From positions 1,161,501 through 1,225,500 of the forward strand of contig NZ_CP084752.1 of the NCBI RefSeq assembly GCF_020535545.1: a stretch of DNA of 64,000 nucleotides. The letters run 5' to 3'. This DNA is from Roseateles sp. XES5. GTDB taxonomy: Bacteria > Pseudomonadota > Alphaproteobacteria > Rhizobiales > Rhizobiaceae. The position numbers were made by a program, and so were the translations under genes. Position 1 is the stretch's first letter. Every line of letters begins with the position of its first letter. Of the stretch, positions 6,283-40,639 are shown in pieces. The notes below the pieces were generated by a model that saw only the letters and a program-made list of their open reading frames with translations, did no database searches and was not told the DNA's origin.

Positions 6283-7893
6283 TCAGCCTCCAAAGCCGAC
6301 GGCCCGCGCCGTCAGGAAATCGAGGGGAGAGGACGGCGTCTCGGTTGCCGGCATCGTCGCGCGCGGCTCCGCCTGCGCGGGGCGAGCCGGGCGGCGAAGA
6401 TCGCGCTGCGACGAAACGTGGAATTCGCGGATCGTACGGCCGAGTTCGAGAATGACCGTCTGGAGATCGCCGCCCGTGCCGCCGAGACGGCCGGCATCGG
6501 CGGCGTCGGCTTCCAGCGTGCGGCCGGCGCGGCCGATCTCGGCCGAGATCCCGTTCAGCCCGTCGGCATCGACGGCGCTCTCGCGCACGATGCCGGTGAT
6601 GGCGCCGTTGATCTCCTCGACCTGACGGACGATGTTGCCGATGGCATCCTGCGTGCGGTGGACGTGCTCGACGCCGGCCTCGACCTGCGCCTTCGTGCCC
6701 GTCACCAGCTGCTTGATCTCGCGTGCCGCCCCGGCCGAGCGCTGGGCCAGGGCCCGCACCTCGGCGGCCACCACGGCAAAGCCGCGGCCCTGCTCGCCGG
6801 CGCGGGCGGCTTCCACCGCGGCATTGAGCGCCAGGATATTGGTCTGGAAGGCGATGCCGTCGATCACGCCGATGATCTCGCCGATCTTTTCCGCCGAAGC
6901 CTCGATATCCGCCATGGCCGACATCGCTTCGCCGACGATGTTGCCGCTGAGCGCGACGGATGCCTGCGTGGATGCGGCCGCGGCCTGGGCCTTGCGGGTC
7001 TCACCGAGCGTCTGGCGCACGCGTTCGACGATCGTGCCGAGGGCGTTGGCGGTCTCGATGAGGCTTGCCGACTGTTCCGAGGAGCGGCTCGAGAGCGCCT
7101 GCGCGCCGGAAGCGAGCGTGCCGACGAGGCGGTCGGTCTCGCCGGCGCGGTCGGCGGCCGAGGCAAGGCGGGACTGGATTTCGTCGAGCGCACCGTTCAG
7201 CATTTCGGCAAGGTCGCGCCAGGCGTCGGGCATCTCGCCGGAAACGCGCTGGGAGAGATCGAGCTGCGAAAGACCGCGAATGGTTTCGCCGAAGACGCGG
7301 TCGAGTTCGGCACGGTCCTGCTGGCGCTGCTCGCCGAGCGCGCGGGCATGGGCGTGACGCAGCTCGTTGAAGCGCAGGGAGACGCCGATTTCCGCATCGA
7401 CCATGGCCGTGCGCAGGAAGGCGGAGACGAGCTCGGTCAGTTCCTTGCGACGGGCCTTGCCGGCGCCGGGCAGGATGGATTTCGGCCAGTATTCCTCGAT
7501 GAGACCGGTGACGACCGTCTCGAGCACGACCGAATGGCCGGCGATGCGCCAGCGCGGATCGAGACCCATCTGGCTTTCGCTGTCGGAGAGAACCTTCACC
7601 CGTTCGGCATAGAGCCCGTCGAACCGCGCGTCGGTCAGGACGCTCCAGTGGGAGCTCTGGAGGTCGTGCAGCCGGTCGATCTGGCGCTCGCTCTGGAAGT
7701 GGCGGGCGGCATCGGGAAAGGTCTGGAAACGCTGGAAAAGGTCGCGAAGCGCGGTTTCGACATGCCGTTCGAGGGTCTGGCGGTGGCGGCGCAGGATATC
7801 GCCGTCGGTGCTTTCCACCCCGGCAAAGCGCAAACGGTCGCGCAGGCTGGCCGCCTGTCCCGTTCGTGCCTGTTCTGCCGGCATTTCCTGCAC
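6283..7893 (-). CDS. icpA: IcpA-type cytoplasmic globin-coupled chemoreceptor
   Basis: First gene of the che operon; a soluble receptor of about 536 residues with no transmembrane segment. Residues about 20-165 follow the globin-coupled sensor (protoglobin) pattern, ending in [11 protein letters not shown]. They are followed by a helical linker and an MCP signalling domain whose hairpin tip, centred on [19 protein letters not shown], is intact. Where heme-binding relatives have His four residues before the Gly of the IGL motif, this protein has Glu (SESQMGL, about residue 106), so heme binding is doubtful. TTG, GTG and ATG starts are possible at 7896, 7893 and 7884; GTG is chosen because GGGAG lies 7 bases upstream. 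The ligand is unknown. Confidence 0.88.
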
Positions 7894-10749: not shown

Positions 10750-11988
10750 ATGTTGACACCCCTGCAGAGCGCGCAGTCCACCGCCGCCGTCTCGGCCATG
10801 CAGTCGCTCGTCGATACGATCGAGGAACGCCGCCGCGAGGAGGCGGAGAAGGCGAGCGGACGCAAGACCGACGACATCCGCGAGCAGGCGCACCTGCAAT
10901 CGGACGATACCGCGCGCCAGGCGAACGCCCGCATCAACGAGCACTTCTTCGGCAGCAATGCGCGCGGCGGCGATACGCTTGCCAAGCTGATCTCCCGCTT
11001 CAGCGATACGCTCGGCCTCAGCCAGCAGGAGGGCGAATCCGCCCGTGCCTTCGCCCAGCGCCTCGCCGACAAGCTTGCCCTCGTCGAGAGCATCGACCTG
11101 CCTGCCAAGGGCAGCACGCTCAACGTCTCCCTCCGTGCGCTCGGCACCAGCCTTGCAGCCGTCCAGCAGGCGATGAGCGGCCCCTCGGACGATGCCGCCG
11201 CCAATCTCGTCGCGCGCCTCGCCTTCGCGGGCGGCGTGACGCAGGGCGAAGGGGAAGCGGATGCCGATTACGAGCAGCGCCTTTCCGCCCTCCTGACGCG
11301 CCAGCGTGGCGAGTTGCCGGCCGACATCACGACCGTCGAGAAGACGTCGGGCCTTTCCGACCTCGGCCTCAAGGCGGCCGATCTCGTCGCCGCGATCCGC
11401 AATCCCTACGGTCCCGAAGCCGAGCGCGTGAAGGATGCGCTGGCCGAAAAGGCCGATGCGGAAAAGGCGCTGACGCCGGAGATGCGGAAGATCATCGCAC
11501 GCCTGGAGGATACCGCCGATCCGAAGACGATCGAGGAACTGAAGCTCGATCGTACCAAGCGCGACCCGACGCGCATCGAGGATGCGCAGACCCGCGGGGA
11601 GCGCGAGGACACGATCCGCACGCTCGAGGCCGGCAAGAAGCTCGAAGACGTCGAGAAGCTTCAGGACGCCGTGGGGCGCGCCCACGAGGAGGCGACGAAG
11701 GGCAAGACGGACGGCCGGAAACCCGCCGACGCCCTCGATACGATCCAGCTGCTTTCCGCCGGCACGGAAGCGACCGACACCGTCGAAAAGGCCACGGCGA
11801 AGAGTGGCGGGAAACCGGCCGACGCCAGGGAGGCGCCCGCCGAGAACAGCGCGGAAGCCGTGCACGACCTCGATGCGGCGAGCATCCGCGAGCAGCAGGA
11901 CCGCGAGGAAGCCAAGAAGGACATCTTCGTGCTGCGCGTCGACGACAACGGCATCTACGATCTCATCACGCGCCAGCTCGTTGCCTGA
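10750..11988 (+). CDS. Large helical rhizobial protein of unknown function
   Basis: 412 residues, highly charged, predicted mostly helical, with no signal peptide or membrane segment. A GGAGG ribosome binding site precedes the ATG. The N-terminus (QSTAAVSAMQSLVDTIEERRREE) and middle are amphipathic helices; residues about 260-390 are Glu/Lys/Asp-rich and coiled-coil-like. The end (FVLRVDDNGIYDLITRQLVA) is more ordered. It contains IRNPYGPEAERVK near residue 217, a motif also present in the unrelated-looking protein at 14304. I do not recognise a family. Convergent with the next gene across a repeat element. Confidence 0.75.
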   Translation: MLTPLQSAQSTAAVSAMQSLVDTIEERRREEAEKASGRKTDDIREQAHLQSDDTARQANARINEHFFGSNARGGDTLAKLISRFSDTLGLSQQEGESARAFAQRLADKLALVESIDLPAKGSTLNVSLRALGTSLAAVQQAMSGPSDDAAANLVARLAFAGGVTQGEGEADADYEQRLSALLTRQRGELPADITTVEKTSGLSDLGLKAADLVAAIRNPYGPEAERVKDALAEKADAEKALTPEMRKIIARLEDTADPKTIEELKLDRTKRDPTRIEDAQTRGEREDTIRTLEAGKKLEDVEKLQDAVGRAHEEATKGKTDGRKPADALDTIQLLSAGTEATDTVEKATAKSGGKPADAREAPAENSAEAVHDLDAASIREQQDREEAKKDIFVLRVDDNGIYDLITRQLVA

Positions 11989-12034
11989 CAGCCATGCCCT
12001 ATCGCTATTCCATTGAGGAAATGACGGCTGGTCC

Positions 12035-12137
12035 TAGAGCATGTCAGGTTCAGATTGAACCAGACGTGCTCCAAATTCTTTTGTTTTCGTTTGTCTTTTC
12101 GGGAAAACCGGTCCCCACTTTCCCTGACAAACTCTAG
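12035..12137. repeat. Modular palindromic repeat, copy 1 (modules B+C)
   Basis: Begins TAGAGCATGTCAGGTTCA, an imperfect palindrome with GTGCTC (module B), then runs through TTCTTTTGTTTTCGTTTGTC and GGAAAACCGGTCCCCACTTT to end TGACAAACTCTAG (module C). The same text recurs at 30010, 48269 and 49385. This copy lies between convergent genes, and its terminal CTA (12134-12136) is the stop codon of the minus-strand gene. It is an intergenic mosaic repeat of the kind known in rhizobia. Confidence 0.85.
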
Positions 12138-12469
12138 GGCTTGCGCCGCACGACCCCGATACGGGCGATGACCTCCGGCGGGATGGCGTAGCGGCGGATC
12201 GCATCCTTCTGGCTGCGCAGCCCGCACATTTCCCGCTGGATGAAGAAGGCCCAGACCTTGTCGGCCGCATCGTTCAGGAGGTCTTCGCGCTCCGCCGCGC
12301 CGCAGCCGGCGGCAAGGCGCTCGGAAAGCAGCGCGACCGCCTTCTCCACCTTCAGCCCGTGCCGGCCGAGCGAATCCGCCCGCTCGGCCATCAGTTCGTA
12401 TTCGAGGATGTTGAGGCCCGTCTCCCTGGTGAAGGAGGGGGCAAGCGCCTGCGGCGGGCGAACCGTCAT
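12134..12469 (-). CDS. Small conserved rhizobial protein of unknown function
   Basis: 111 residues, soluble, mostly helical and without Cys-rich or membrane features. The pattern LNILEYELMAERADSLGRHGLKVEKAV followed by KVWAFFIQREMCGLRSQKDAIRRYAIPPEVIARIG looks like an uncharacterised alphaproteobacterial family (possibly DUF6665, from memory and not checked). The stop codon TAG is supplied by the end of a repeat element. It lies 57 bases downstream of the nicotinamide phosphoribosyltransferase gene on the same strand and may be cotranscribed with it. No function is proposed. Confidence 0.75.
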   Translation of the reverse strand: MTVRPPQALAPSFTRETGLNILEYELMAERADSLGRHGLKVEKAVALLSERLAAGCGAAEREDLLNDAADKVWAFFIQREMCGLRSQKDAIRRYAIPPEVIARIGVVRRKP

Positions 12470-12526
12470 CTCTTGTCTCCTGTCGTCGGCCCCAAGATGA
12501 TGCCGCGCAGGCCGGACTGCAAGAGA

Positions 12527-13912
12527 TCAGCCGGCCGCGCGGGCGCGCACCGCGTCGAAGCTCCAGTCGACGAGGAGTTCACCGTCGCGCCAGACCGGCT
12601 GCAACCGGTTTTCCCGGCCTGCAAGCTGATCGACACGGGCCGCTTCCAGCCCGACATAGCCTTCGACCACCGCCTGGCGGCCGGCCTTGGAGGCCTTGAG
12701 GTTCATCGTGGCCGGGCGCTTGTAGACGTCATGCCAGGCGCCGGCGGTGTCCTGCCGGGCATTGGCCTTCATGGCGAAGGAATAGGTATCCCGGTTGACG
12801 CGCTGGAGGAGTCCCGCCCCCATGCCGAAGGCGATGTTCTCCGCCGAGAAGCCGAAGGCCTCGAGACGGCCGAGGATGAGGCCGATATCGGACGGCGAGA
12901 TGCCGTCGCCCTGGATGACGCGCACGCTGTTGTCGAGCACCTTGTAGCCCTTGCCGTTGAGATGCGTGCCGAAGGCATAGGCGAGCTGGCGCACGACCTG
13001 CACCGGCGTTTCCACCGGATCGCCGCTGTCCGGGCGCACGACGAGCGTGCCGCCCGCGGCCTGCACCTTCTCCTTGAGCTGCTTGCCCCAGATCTCCGCG
13101 ACGGCATTGTTGATGTCGTAACTGTCGGAAACGACGGCATAGAGACCCTTGCCGCCGAACTTGTCGATCATGTTGCCATAGGCTTCCGCCTCGCGCTCCT
13201 GTCCCCAGGAGGTCATGGTGGAGTGCTCGGAGGCCGGGATGGAGAAGCCGGCCATGTCGGCGCCGTAATAGCGGCGGGCATAGAGCACCGCGCTGACCGT
13301 ATCCGTGCCCATGAAATTGACGAGATGCGCCGTACCGCCGATGCCGGCCTGTTCGAAACTGGTGGTTCCGCGCGCGCCAAAATCGTGCAGGCGGAAGGGC
13401 AGGACGGCGGCCGGGTCGTCGCAGGTCCTTTCCAGGATCGGCTGGATGATCTGCTTCACCTTACGCGAATTGGAGGCCACAGTGCTCGGGTACCAGATGG
13501 CGCGCAGGAACGCCGTCTCGATATAGGAGGTCAGCCAGTAGCAGGCGGGATCGGTGTTGACGACCTGCGCCATCGGCACGCCGCGGCGCACCATCGTGCC
13601 CTCCGGCAGCGCCTCGATGAGGAGCGGCAGGTAGCCGCCGTGCTTGCGCACGATATGCGTCCAGCCCTCGCGGTTGAACGGCAGGCCATGCGCCGTGACG
13701 ATCCCCTCGGCCTCGTCGACATCCGCCATCGTCACCGGCTTCGACAGATATTCCTTGAGGAACATCTGGAGCCCGAAGAACAGCACTTCCGGGTGATCGG
13801 AATGGCCGCGCGCCTCGACATAGGACGAGATCGCCCGGGTTTCCGGCGGATATTGCAGGTAGTGGCTGAACTTGTAGCTGTCGGTGTTGAGGATGAGGTT
13901 GGTGAGGTTCAT
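12527..13912 (-). CDS. nadV: Nicotinamide phosphoribosyltransferase (NAMPT/NadV type)
   Basis: Makes nicotinamide mononucleotide from nicotinamide and PRPP, the one-step NAD salvage route. The 461 residues align by motif with animal NAMPT: D11 and Y13 in NTDSYKFSHY, the HDFGARGTTSFEQAGIGGTAHL loop, D204 in GTDTVS, H230 in PASEHSTMTSWG (the phosphorylated His in the family), and VRPDSGDP for ribose-phosphate. The Asp204 counterpart of human Asp219 is the residue thought to favour nicotinamide over nicotinate. The alternative name nicotinate phosphoribosyltransferase (PncB) fits less well. Confidence 0.88.
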   Translation of the reverse strand: MNLTNLILNTDSYKFSHYLQYPPETRAISSYVEARGHSDHPEVLFFGLQMFLKEYLSKPVTMADVDEAEGIVTAHGLPFNREGWTHIVRKHGGYLPLLIEALPEGTMVRRGVPMAQVVNTDPACYWLTSYIETAFLRAIWYPSTVASNSRKVKQIIQPILERTCDDPAAVLPFRLHDFGARGTTSFEQAGIGGTAHLVNFMGTDTVSAVLYARRYYGADMAGFSIPASEHSTMTSWGQEREAEAYGNMIDKFGGKGLYAVVSDSYDINNAVAEIWGKQLKEKVQAAGGTLVVRPDSGDPVETPVQVVRQLAYAFGTHLNGKGYKVLDNSVRVIQGDGISPSDIGLILGRLEAFGFSAENIAFGMGAGLLQRVNRDTYSFAMKANARQDTAGAWHDVYKRPATMNLKASKAGRQAVVEGYVGLEAARVDQLAGRENRLQPVWRDGELLVDWSFDAVRARAAG

Positions 13913-14303
13913 CGAAAGGTCTCCGCCGCATCCGCGGTCCGCAAATCCCCGGCGGCCGACAGTGCGGGCAAGATTTACGCGAGGTGAGCATAAGGGGCAA
14001 GGGCCGTGCCTCGCTGCGGATGCGAACGACGCGAACGACGCGAACGCGGCGTTAACCTTCTGTTAACCATAAAATGCCAATTGTTAGCGTCATAGTGGTT
14101 CGGAGTACCGGGGTTTCCCGTCCGGCACAGTTCGCGGTTCAGTGTTTCGCCGGTTTACCCGCCGCCTCCCGCAGAAATGCCCGGTTCGCCGGGCTGAAAG
14201 CTCACCAGCTCGCAGCGTCGCGCATGATGCGCCATCCGACGAATGATGGAACATTGGCAGGCCTTGCGATGCGGATGGCATCGACGGCGAACAGGAGGCA
14301 GGC
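13913..14303. other. Intergenic region between divergent nadV and the 14304 gene
   Basis: About 390 bases holding the promoters of both divergent genes. Seen inside are a short tandem run of GCGAACGAC (three copies near 14026-14050) and an AT-rich patch with two GTTAACC-like words (14051-14072) that may be a promoter core. No tRNA, small RNA or convincing operator was found. A partial NAD-responsive site could be expected here but I cannot point to one. Confidence 0.4.
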
Positions 14304-31282: not shown

Positions 31283-33424
31283 TTACTCGGCAGCTTCGCC
31301 GTCGCCCTTCTTGTCGGCGGCGATTTCCTTGCCGGTCGCCTGATCGACGACCTTCATGGAGAGGCGAACCTTGCCGCGCTCGTCGAAGCCCATCAGCTTG
31401 ACCCAGACCTTGTCGCCTTCCTTGACGACGTCGGAGGTCTTGGCAACGCGCTCCTGAGCGAGCTGCGAGATGTGCACGAGGCCGTCGCGCGGGCCGAAGA
31501 AGTTGACGAAGGCGCCGAAGTCGGCGGTCTTGACGACCGTGCCTTCGTAGATCTGGCCGACTTCCGGTTCCGCGACGATGGAGTGGATCCACTTGCGGGC
31601 CGCTTCGATCTCCTTGCCGGACGAGGACGCGATCTTGATCGTGCCGTCGTCTTCGATGTTGATCTTGGCGCCGGTCTTCTCGACGATTTCGCGGATGACC
31701 TTGCCGCCCGTGCCGATGACTTCACGGATCTTGTCGACCGGGATGTTCATGACTTCGATGCGCGGTGCGAATTCGCCGAGCTGGCTGCGGCCTTCGGAGA
31801 TGGCGTGGGCCATCACACCCAGGATGTGCATGCGGGCTTCCTTGGCCTGGGCCAGGGCGACCTGCATGATTTCCTTGGTGATGCCCTGGATCTTGATGTC
31901 CATCTGCAGGGCGGTGATGCCGGTGGTGGAACCGGCCACCTTGAAGTCCATATCGCCCAGGTGATCTTCGTCACCCAGGATGTCGGTCAGCACGGCGAAA
32001 CGGTTGCCGTCCTTGATCAGACCCATGGCGATGCCGGCCACATGGGCCTTCAGGGGCACGCCGGCGTCCATCAGCGACAGGCAGCCGCCGCAGACCGAAG
32101 CCATGGACGACGAACCGTTGGACTCGGTGATCTCGGAGACCACGCGGATCGAGTAGGGGAAGTCTTCCTTGTTCGGCAGCACGGCCACCAGGGCGCGCTT
32201 GGCCAGACGGCCGTGACCGATCTCGCGGCGCTTGGGGCTGCCCACGCGACCGGTTTCGCCGGTGGCGAAGGGAGGCATGTTGTAGTGCAGCATGAAGCGC
32301 TCGCTGTACTCGCCAGCCAGGGCGTCGATCACCTGGGCGTCACGCTCGGTGCCCAGGGTCGCGGCCACCAGGGCCTGGGTCTCGCCGCGGGTGAACAGCG
32401 AGGAGCCGTGGGCGCGCGGCAGCACGCCGACTTCCGAAACGATGGCGCGAACGGTTTCGAGATCGCGGCCGTCGATGCGGCTCTTGGTGTCGAGGATGTT
32501 CCAGCGAACGATCTTGGCCTGCAGGTGCTTGAAGACGGCGCCGATGACTTCGGCGCTGTACTTCGGCTCGACGCCTTCCGGCAGGAAGTGTGCCTTGACC
32601 TTGGCCTTGACGGCGTCGACGGCAGCGTAGCGATCGGCCTTCTGGGTGATCTTGTAGGCAGCGCGGAGTTCGGTTTCTGCGATGCCGAGCATTTCGGCTT
32701 CGAGTTCGGAATGATCTTCCGGCGTGAAGTCGCGCGGTTCCTTGGCAGCCACTTCAGCGAGCTTGATGATCGCGTCGATGACCGGCTGGAAGCCCTTGTG
32801 GCCGAACATGACGGCGCCGAGCATGACGTCTTCGTTCAGTTCCTTGGCTTCGGATTCGACCATCAGGACGGCGTCCTGCGTGCCGGCGACGACGAGGTCG
32901 AGAACCGACTCGTCCATCTCGTCCAGATGCGGGTTCAGGACGTATTCGCCGTTGATGTAGCCGACGCGCGCGCCGCCGACCGGGCCCATGAAGGGAACGC
33001 CGGAGATCGTGAGCGCAGCCGAAGCGGCAACCATCGACAGGACGTCGGGATCGTTTTCGAGATCATGCTGGACGACCGTGACGACGACCTGCGTGTCGTT
33101 CTTGTAGCCTTCGGGGAACAGCGGACGGATCGGACGGTCGATCAGGCGGCTGGTCAGGGTCTCCAGCTCGCTGGGACGGCCTTCACGCTTGAAGAAGCTG
33201 CCGGGGATCTTGCCGGCGGCATAGGTCTTCTCGATGTAGTCGACGGTCAGGGGGAAGAAGTCCTGGCCCGGCTTGGGGGCCTTGGCGGAAACGACGGTCG
33301 CGAGAACGACGGTTTCGCCGTAGGTCGCCAGAACCGCGCCGTCAGCCTGACGGGCGATCTTGCCGGTTTCCAGCTTGAGCGGACGGCCCGCCCATTCGAT
33401 TTCAACCGTATGGGTATCGAACAT
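31283..33424 (-). CDS. pnp: Polyribonucleotide nucleotidyltransferase (PNPase), mosaic gene
   Basis: Processive 3'-5' phosphorolytic RNase of the degradosome and cold-shock response. The 713-residue protein has two RNase PH domains, with the [11 protein letters not shown] and [13 protein letters not shown] active-site motifs in the second, then KH (about 555-615, [18 protein letters not shown]) and S1 (about 620-690) domains. The frame is intact. Residues about 47-102 and 342-542 look betaproteobacterial: [19 protein letters not shown] and [19 protein letters not shown], for instance, where rhizobia have [19 protein letters not shown] and [16 protein letters not shown] (from memory). All leucines there are CTG. 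See the findings. Confidence 0.95.
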
Positions 33425-37871: not shown

Positions 37872-40538
37872 TTACAGCGTGCGCGTGATATGCTCCACGC
37901 GGAAGCACTCGATCTGGTCGCCCGCGCGGATGTCTTCGTAGCTCTCGAAGGCCATGCCGCATTCCTGGCCGACATTGACTTCCGACACTTCGTCCTTGAA
38001 GCGCTTGAGCGTCTTGAGCTTGCCTTCGTGGATGACGACGTTGTCGCGAACCAGGCGCACGCCGACGCCACGCTCGACCTTGCCTTCGGTGACGCGGCAA
38101 CCCGCGACCTTGCCGACCTTCGTGATGTTGAACACCTCGAGGATTTCGGCGTAGCCGAGGAAGGTTTCGCGGCGCTCGGGCGAGAGCAGACCGGACATGG
38201 CCGCCTTCACGTCATCCACCAGATCGTAGATGATGTTGTAGTAGCGGATTTCGATGCCCTGGCGCTCGGCAAGCGAGCGGGCCTGTGCGTTCGCACGGAC
38301 GTTGAAGCCGATGATGGCGGCGTTGGACGCTTCGGCGAGCGAAATGTCCGACTCGGTGATGGCGCCTGCGCCGGAATGCACGATGCGCACCCGCACTTCG
38401 TCCGTGCCGAGCTTTTCGAGCGCGCCGGCAATGGCTTCGATCGAGCCCTGCACGTCGCCCTTGATGAGCAGCGGGAATTCCTTGAGACCGGAATTCTGCA
38501 GCTGGTTCATCATCTGCTCGAGCGAGCCGCGCGAACCCGACTGGCGTGCCACCTGCTTTTCGCGGGCGAGACGCTGGCGGTACTCGGAGATCTCGCGGGC
38601 GCGGCTCTCGTTCTCGACGACGGCGAACTTGTCGCCGGCGGCCGGCGTACCGGAAAGACCGAGAACCTCGACCGGCATGGCGGGACCGGCTTCCTTGACG
38701 TGTTCGCCCTTGTCGTTGACGAGCGCGCGCACGCGGCCCCACTGATCGCCGGCGACCAGGATCTGGCCGGGCTTCAGCGTACCGGTCTGCACGAGAACCG
38801 TCGCGACGGCACCGCGGCCGCGGTCGAGCTGGGCTTCGACGACGACGCCCTCTGCCGTGCGGTTCGGGTTGGCCTTAAGGTCGAGGATTTCAGCCTGCAG
38901 CAGGATGGCTTCGAGCAGCTTGTCGAGGTTCGTGCCGTTCTTGGCCGAGACTTCCACGTCGAGCGTTTCACCGCCCATGGATTCGACGAACACCTCGTGC
39001 TGGAGGAGCTGCGTGCGAACGCGCTGGGCGTCTGCCGTCGGCTTGTCGATCTTGGTGACCGCCACCACGATGGGCACACCGGCCGCCTTGGCGTGGTGCA
39101 CGGCTTCCTTGGTCTGGGGCATGACGCCGTCATCGGCCGCACAGACCAGGATGACGATGTCGGTGGCCTTGGCACCGCGGGCACGCATGGCCGTGAAGGC
39201 CTCGTGACCCGGGGTGTCCAGGAAGGTGATGGTGCCGCGCGGGGTGTCCACGTGGTAGGCACCGATATGCTGCGTGATGCCGCCGGCTTCGCCCGCGGCC
39301 ACCCGGCTGCGACGGATGTAGTCCAGCAGCGAGGTCTTACCGTGGTCGACGTGACCCATGACGGTGACGACCGGCGGACGGGATTCCTGATCGCCTTCTT
39401 CGTCGGCAACGTTGAAGATGCCTTCTTCGACGTCGGATTCCGAAACGCGCTTGACGGTATGGCCGAATTCGCCGGCGATGAGTTCAGCCAGGTCGGCGTC
39501 GATCAGATCGCCGGGCTTCATCATCTGACCTTCCTTCATCAGGTACTTGATGACGTCGACGGCGCGTTCGGACATGCGCTGCGACAGTTCCTGAATGGTG
39601 ATGGTCTCGGGCAGGACGACTTCGCGCGAAATCTTCTCGCGCGTTTCCTGCATCATGGAGCGCTTGAACTTCTCCTGGCGGCGACGCATGGCCGAGAGCG
39701 AGCGACCGCGCTGTGCGCCGTCCTCGTCGCTCGACGCCGTGGTCAGCGTCAGCTTGCCCTGGCGGCGGCCGTCGTCGGCCTTCGGACGGGCGGGAGCCTT
39801 GGCCGGCTCGGGACGCTTGACCGCGCCGCGATTGGCGGGCGCGCCGCCGCGCGGACGCTTGTCGTCGTCCTCTTCGGTTTCGCGGCGGCCGCGACCGGCG
39901 ACCGGCGTGGATGCCGGAGCCGGAGCAGGCGTGCGGGTCGGCTGCGGGCGGGCTTCAGCAACAGCAGGCTTGTTGGCCACGGGCTGCGCGGCAACCTCTT
40001 CCTCTACGACGGGCGCCGGTGCGGCAGCCTCGGCGGCGCGGCGCTCGGCCTCTTCCTTCTCGCGCTGGATGCGGGCTTCTTCCTCGACGACGCGACGGGC
40101 TTCTTCTTCCACCTTGCGGCGGGCCTCGTCCTCGGCGCGCTGGCGGGCTTCGGCAGCGTCGCGGATCTGCGCTTCGGCAAGCGCGCGACGACGGGCCTCG
40201 ACCTCGTCAGGGGAGAGCTGGTTCAGGACAACGCCGCGCGGACGGCTCTGCTCGGCCTGGCGCGAGGGCTGCTGCTGCATGGGGCGCGCGGGCTGCGGCG
40301 CGGGGCGCGTCTGCTGCGGCTCCGGCTGGCGCTGCACGGGCGCGACGGGCGCCGCTGCCTGGCGTTCTTCACCCGGGCGGCTGAAATGGCGCTTCGTGCG
40401 GGTCTCGACCACGACGGCCTTCGTCCGGCCACGACCCATGTCCTGGCGAACGGTTCCCTGCTGAACCCCCGAGGGCTTCAGGCTCAGGGTCTTCTTGCCA
40501 GCCACGCTGATCGTCTTGTCGTCTTCGTTGTCGGTCAT
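37872..40538 (-). CDS. infB: Translation initiation factor IF-2, mosaic gene
   Basis: GTPase that places initiator tRNA on the 30S subunit. The 888-residue protein has the long low-complexity N-domain (Ala/Arg/Glu-rich coiled coil about 115-190), then the IF2 N2/G domains: G1 [13 protein letters not shown]3 DTPGHEAF and G4 TKID, then domains II, III and IV (ending [18 protein letters not shown]). Residues about 390-501 read like betaproteobacterial IF2 and use only CTG for Leu, while the flanks are rhizobial and CTC-rich. The frame is intact. Confidence 0.95.
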
Positions 40539-40639
40539 TCCGTTCCGTTCCTAAGATCAGGGCCGGATGCGGATCGGACCCTGTCGTTCAAATGTGTACA
40601 TCCAATGCGATTTCGGCCGGCGGAGAGCCGGTGACCGCG

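What the first reader, a model, noticed from the sequence alone, without database searches (positions are those of the whole stretch)
31795..32405. Internal segment of pnp reads as betaproteobacterial, flanked by rhizobial sequence
Over about residues 342-542 the encoded PNPase follows Comamonadaceae-type text (for example [75 protein letters not shown]). The flanks, up to [18 protein letters not shown] and from [19 protein letters not shown] on, are typical rhizobial. By eye all 17 Leu codons in the block are CTG, while flanking parts use CTC often. GGT and CGT also rise inside it. Either a homologous replacement across classes in an essential degradosome enzyme, or an assembly chimera at a conserved gene.
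Basis: partly seen in the sequence, partly recalled or inferred. Interest (0 to 1): 0.72.

Follow-up and report, generated by a model that had tools for sequence, protein, structure and literature searches.

The report
Polishing artefact mimicking gene transfer
A foreign-looking block in an essential gene is not gene transfer but a data mix-up: two frog-skin bacteria sequenced together had conserved parts of their genome assemblies overwritten with each other's sequence, which is ordinary as biology but a real fault in two published genomes.

Summary
Window 31814-32426 (pnp residues 333-537) is 97.7% identical in DNA to a Roseateles/Kinneretia genome (G531); the rest of pnp is mostly Shinella-like.

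It is not horizontal transfer. In 803.5 kb of this chromosome, compared with 555 kb of G531 pieces, 24 such runs (9,571 bp) appear; 80 kb of a clean Shinella shows 3 short ones (335 bp). A second assembly, G430, is the mirror image: a Roseateles backbone with Shinella sequence in the same places (of 188 windows, 42 swapped in both, 7 in one only, 139 in neither). Where blocks overhang, the two assemblies share exact stretches of up to 294 bp. 23S rRNA is exchanged too.

Replicon lengths identify both as strains XES5 and XGS7 of one announcement (PMC8675264): Nanopore assemblies polished with medaka and Pilon. Best explanation: long and short reads of the two isolates were crossed, so short-read polishing overwrote conserved stretches with the other strain's sequence. 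The names are crossed as well: this Shinella chromosome is the assembly published as Kinneretia sp. XES5.

The parts
31283..33424 (-). pnp (polyribonucleotide nucleotidyltransferase), 713 codons, open; the only pnp in the genome; composite of Shinella backbone and two Roseateles-type blocks
   Evidence: NCBIfam TIGR03591 at 1064 bits, cut-off 525
31814..32426 (-). main Roseateles-type block (gene nt 999-1611)
   Evidence: 153 donor-type and 9 host-type sites; 97.7% over 620 bp to G531
   Evidence: 28 donor-type and 2 host-type sites; identity profile
32930..33112 (-). native Shinella stretch of 183 bp that stands identically in the pnp of the Roseateles assembly G430
   Evidence: exact match, absent from the clean reference pieces held; site map
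32426..32480 (-). native stretch of 55 bp at the edge of the main block, identical in G430
   Evidence: exact match, absent from the clean reference pieces held
39050..39371 (-). Roseateles-type block in infB (frame 37875-40550)
   Evidence: 69 donor-type and 3 host-type sites, coordinates; 97.0% over 335 bp to G531; infB by NCBIfam TIGR00487, 799 bits, cut-off 424
6712..6880 (.). possible further block, not proved
   Evidence: 92.3% to G531 over 169 bp but 80.2% to G003 over 167 bp; the stretch has many weaker matches in both genomes

Best explanation
The window comes from the assembly published as Kinneretia (now Roseateles) sp. XES5, whose backbone is a Shinella. Its partner, published as Shinella sp. 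XGS7, has a Roseateles/Kinneretia backbone. The Nanopore and Illumina data of the two isolates were crossed, so each long-read assembly was polished with the other isolate's short reads. Those reads could align only where the two genomes are similar enough (conserved genes, rRNA), and there the polisher rewrote the consensus to the foreign sequence. The pnp block is one of many such rewrites. Shown: the blocks, their number in the part surveyed, the mirror pattern, the identity of both assemblies by replicon length. Inferred: that Pilon was the step, that the crossing was of read sets, and which set was misnamed.
For: Many blocks: 24 runs, 9,571 bp of 73,076 aligned, against 3 runs, 335 bp of 36,077 in clean Shinella G003. 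21 of the 24 runs lie in genes named by curated models (two tuf copies, fusA, rpsL, rpoC, rpoB, isocitrate lyase, edd, pnp, infB, prfC, lepA), one spans rpoC-rpoB, two were not named. Mirror image: 80 kb of G430 gives 20 Shinella-like runs, 9,013 bp of 34,384 aligned; clean Roseateles G531 gives 3 runs, 335 bp of 27,703. Of 188 windows, 42 swapped in both, 3 in G000 only, 4 in G430 only, 139 in neither; of the 26 windows where clean Shinella and Roseateles are at least 80% alike 21 are swapped in G000, of the 69 under 60% only 3. Shared private sequence: 13 exact stretches of 47-294 bp, 11 absent from the clean reference pieces. rRNA: one G000 23S is 96.4-96.7% to G531 and about 82% to G003; one G430 23S is 97-98% to G003 and 82-83% to G531. 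Identity: all six G000 contig lengths and the total equal those printed for XES5; G430's three contigs fit XGS7's printed total and plasmids. Method: Trycycler on Nanopore reads, then medaka and Pilon with MiSeq reads.
Against: No raw reads could be examined. The paper's G+C row (XES5 68%, XGS7 64%) and ANI row (XES5 nearest Kinneretia asaccharophila 89.91%, XGS7 nearest Shinella zoogloeoides 88.53%) follow the names, not the sequences that I measured (G000 chromosome 64.6% in 803.5 kb), so the exact point of the mix-up is open. The same 18,961-bp plasmid is in both assemblies, which a clean swap alone does not explain. Backbone frame breaks, expected if it was never rightly polished by short reads, were not shown (inconclusive).
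Confidence: 0.87

Rival explanations
1. The two DNAs or libraries were mixed, or barcodes bled both ways, rather than read sets being crossed; foreign reads then won the consensus in conserved stretches.
For: The same 18,961-bp plasmid stands at 100% in both assemblies (14,995 bp compared), which suggests some bleed.
Against: Within blocks donor-type sites prevail almost wholly (153 to 9 and 28 to 2 in pnp), which is not expected where native short reads compete; the mirror pattern in both assemblies and the crossed names fit a crossing better.
Confidence: 0.11
2. An assembly-graph chimera: the assembler jumped between two genomes at shared sequence inside pnp.
For: Conserved genes are where such jumps happen (general knowledge).
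Against: The path returns to the host after 613 bp and does so in many genes. By proxy only 3-7 shared bases lie at the four G000 pnp junctions. The assemblers used were long-read ones.
Confidence: 0.01
3. True homologous replacement across classes: a Shinella took up Roseateles DNA and recombined parts of pnp and other conserved genes.
For: The composite frame is open and keeps the full PNPase match; replaced parts are the most conserved ones, as homologous recombination would also need.
Against: It would need the reverse exchange at the same places in a Roseateles of the same study, including 23S rRNA. Among the best 120 proteins listed for the block no other rhizobial name appears (capped list; many rows unnamed).
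Confidence: 0.005

Closest known systems
Wrong-sample or contaminated short-read polishing of a long-read assembly
   Same: Backbone right, foreign consensus only where reads of another organism can align; many places at once.
   Different: Here it is mutual between two named assemblies and has also moved rRNA identity and names. I found no paper describing this pair's fault or a like case; searches were in PMC open-licence papers only.
Genome announcement of strains XES5 and XGS7 (PMC8675264)
   Same: XES5 total 5,810,938 and all six replicon lengths equal G000; XGS7 plasmids and total fit G430.
   Different: Printed genus names are opposite to the backbones, and the printed XGS7 chromosome length (4,025,507) does not fit its own total (5,248,830), which requires 5,159,983, G430's C1.
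Intragenic homologous replacement across taxa
   Same: A block of one gene has another clade's sequence between native flanks.
   Different: Here the donor assembly carries the mirror replacement, and dozens of stretches in conserved genes are affected at once.

Membership tests
Cross-sample polishing artefact | Foreign stretches confined to places where the two genomes are alike | tested here: met
   Swapped in G000: 21 of 26 windows at 80% likeness or more, 3 of 69 under 60% (windows with under 4 informative sites dropped, number not recorded)
Cross-sample polishing artefact | Many loci affected in one assembly, not in clean relatives | tested here: met
   24 runs, 9,571 bp, against 3 runs, 335 bp in the control
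Cross-sample polishing artefact | Donor is a sample of the same study, with the mirror pattern if reads were crossed | tested here: met
   G430 has the mirror blocks; both assemblies match one announcement
Cross-sample polishing artefact | Raw reads disagree with the consensus in the blocks | not testable with these tools
Horizontal gene transfer by homologous replacement | One-way: the donor lineage keeps its own sequence at the locus | tested here: not met
   G430 carries Shinella sequence at the same place (97.3% to G003 over 671 bp)
Horizontal gene transfer by homologous replacement | Mosaic found in independently sequenced strains | tested here: inconclusive
PNPase | Full-length PNPase match over the curated cut-off | tested here: met
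   TIGR03591 1064 bits, cut-off 525; Pfam PF01138, PF03725, PF03726, PF00013, PF00575 precomputed

The most novel reading that the evidence does not exclude
For the pnp block itself no biological novelty survives. The boldest reading not excluded concerns the 18,961-bp plasmid that stands in both assemblies: it may really be carried by both a Shinella and a Roseateles from one frog colony, a recent transfer of a plasmid between bacterial classes, rather than barcode bleed.
Probability: 0.08. Interest if true: 0.3.

Novelty: not a real feature. Interest (0 to 1): 0.12.

Why it matters
It removes a false case of recombination across classes in an RNA-decay enzyme. It also shows that two published 'complete' genomes with low estimated contamination (G000 0.15%; 0.39% and 0.58% in the paper) hold each other's sequence in conserved genes and rRNA and bear each other's names. 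Work that uses them for phylogeny, 16S naming, transfer or codon analysis, or as classifier references is affected. One pond metagenome paper lists 'Shinella sp. XGS7' among sediment species (PMC12174113, one passage seen), although that assembly's backbone is Roseateles.

Tried and rejected
Rejected: horizontal replacement and graph chimera (see rivals). A second pnp in the genome: none; the two other matches cover only about residues 612-694, at 34-43% identity. Frame breaks as a test of whether the backbone was ever rightly polished: of 47 reference frames 36 full, 4 split, 7 partial in G000; of 38, 32 full, 1 split, 5 partial in G430; inconclusive, because the mechanical frames include antisense ones. 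A megablast at 98% between the assemblies found no chromosomal match because alignments run on past the identical parts; an exact-match search replaced it. In one search rpoB was not extracted, and the 'infB' alignment used an antisense frame of the same DNA; its windows come from pnp, infB, fusA and rpoC. My first name for L171 (prfC) was a guess and was confirmed; typA for L165 was not checked (its best G531 piece is only 84% over 502 bp). The search for a published like case (listings only) gave no fitting title.

Full report
WHAT WAS CLAIMED.

CHECK. The best of 19 relatives falls to 68-88% nucleotide identity over residues 341-540, where the best of 12 beta-proteobacterial genes is at 85-98%. 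Site segmentation gives the block as window 31814-32426 and a second, unreported block at 33113-33275. The main block is 97.7% identical over 620 bp to genome G531. G531 seems to be a Roseateles (Kinneretia) asaccharophilus MAG: its contig C4 is 370,398 bp long, as is the longest contig given for protein P0008, which bears that name. This link is an inference.

THE WINDOW'S OWN GENOME. G000 has one pnp and 5,810,938 bases in six contigs. Other conserved genes proved to be patched: prfC has 408 bp at 98.5% to G531, and rpsL 279 bp at 97.1% (names). In 803.5 kb of the chromosome set against 555 kb of G531 pieces (some overlapping), 24 runs of at least 92% identity in 100-bp windows add up to 9,571 bp of 73,076 aligned. 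The same scan of 80 kb of the relative G003 gives 3 runs, 335 bp of 36,077. Of the 24 runs, 21 lie in genes named by curated NCBIfam models (two tuf copies, fusA, rpsL, rpoC, rpoB, isocitrate lyase, edd, pnp, infB, prfC, lepA), one spans the rpoC-rpoB junction, and two were not named. In the window, infB carries a third block at 39050-39371.

THE MIRROR IMAGE. Among the three genomes held for the genus of G531, G430 stood out: it matches the main block at only 76%. Its pnp is a Roseateles gene with Shinella sequence in the corresponding places (97.3% to G003 over 671 bp; site map). In 80 kb of G430, 20 Shinella-like runs cover 9,013 of 34,384 aligned bp; the control, G531, gives 3 runs, 335 of 27,703 bp. 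In 188 windows from four gene regions 42 are swapped in both assemblies, 3 only in G000, 4 only in G430 and 139 in neither; swapping rises steeply with the likeness of the two clean genomes. The blocks of the two assemblies do not end at the same base, so in the overhangs both show one strain's sequence: 13 exact stretches of 47-294 bp, 11 of them absent from the clean reference pieces held. One of them, 183 bp, is window 32930-33112.

RIBOSOMAL RNA. One of the three G000 23S genes was examined: 96.4% and 96.7% to G531 over 1,291 and 1,237 bp, but 82.1-82.6% to two G003 copies. Its 16S is 95.0% to G531; no Shinella 16S was compared. A 214-bp stretch with the 5S gene stays Shinella-like (92.6% to G003). 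One G430 23S is 98.0% and 97.1% to two G003 copies and 82-83% to G531. Loci L234 and L304 contain masked N stretches. Exchanged rRNA would explain why 16S-based naming gave each assembly the other's genus; this is an inference.

WHO THEY ARE. A plasmid search with G000 C5 gave NZ_CP084760.1, 'UNVERIFIED_ORG: Shinella sp. XGS7 plasmid unnamed2', 18,961 bp, from a Xenopus laevis skin swab, Dunedin. G430's contigs C2 (69,886 bp) and C3 (18,961 bp) match the two XGS7 plasmids at 100% over the 15 kb compared. The announcement (PMC8675264; first of two parts of the text read, which holds the whole announcement and the start of the references) gives XES5, called Kinneretia, as 5,810,938 bp with a chromosome of 4,026,671 and plasmids of 895,176, 733,869, 102,922, 33,339 and 18,961: exactly G000. 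For XGS7 the total minus the plasmids is 5,159,983, exactly G430's C1, although the chromosome length printed is 4,025,507. So G000 is the XES5 assembly and G430 the XGS7 assembly.

MECHANISM. The paper assembled Nanopore reads (Trycycler with Raven, Flye and miniasm), then polished with medaka and with Pilon, using MiSeq reads of 300 bases. If each long-read assembly was polished with the other isolate's short reads, those reads could align only at conserved stretches and would rewrite them. This accounts for the dependence on likeness, the mirror pattern, the sharp edges (3-7 shared bases by proxy at the four G000 pnp junctions, 0-9 in G430) and the rRNA. The step is inferred, as no reads were available. 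Against a simple story: the paper's G+C and ANI rows follow the names and not the sequences (G000 chromosome 64.6% G+C in 803.5 kb, where the paper has 68% for XES5), and the shared 18,961-bp plasmid needs some bleed or a true shared plasmid.

VERDICT. Not a real biological feature, but a database error worth reporting to the submitters and to users of GCA_020535545.1 and GCA_020535565.1.

Noticed in passing
L188 (G000 C5) and L207 (G430 C3): The same 18,961-bp plasmid is in both assemblies, 100% over the 14,995 bp compared, with a 5-base offset of the start. Bleed between samples or a truly shared plasmid.
   Followed up: partly
G000 and G430 as wholes: The names of the two published assemblies are crossed relative to their backbones; NCBI marks the XGS7 plasmid records UNVERIFIED_ORG.
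   Followed up: yes
L292 14827-16329 (G000 16S) and 11106-13922 (G000 23S): rRNA genes of a Shinella chromosome read as Roseateles/Kinneretia: 16S 95.0%, 23S 96.4-96.7% to G531.
   Followed up: partly
L289 6349-7746 and L290 3-1700: Isocitrate lyase and phosphogluconate dehydratase (edd) also carry Roseateles-like runs, so the effect is not limited to translation and transcription genes.
   Followed up: partly
window 6712-6880: 169 bp at 92.3% to G531 but about 80% to G003; perhaps another overwritten stretch, in a sequence with many relatives in both genomes.
   Followed up: partly
proteins P0001 and P0024: Two database PNPases seem by eye to have part of the core repeated in the chain (777 and 722 aa); they look like assembly errors of their own.
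   Followed up: no
PMC12174113, section 10: A pond metagenome paper lists 'Shinella sp. XGS7' as enriched in sediment beside Rhizobacter and Rubrivivax (one passage); such reads may really be Roseateles-like.
   Followed up: no
PMC8675264, Table 1: The XGS7 chromosome length printed (4,025,507) does not fit its own total and plasmids.
   Followed up: yes
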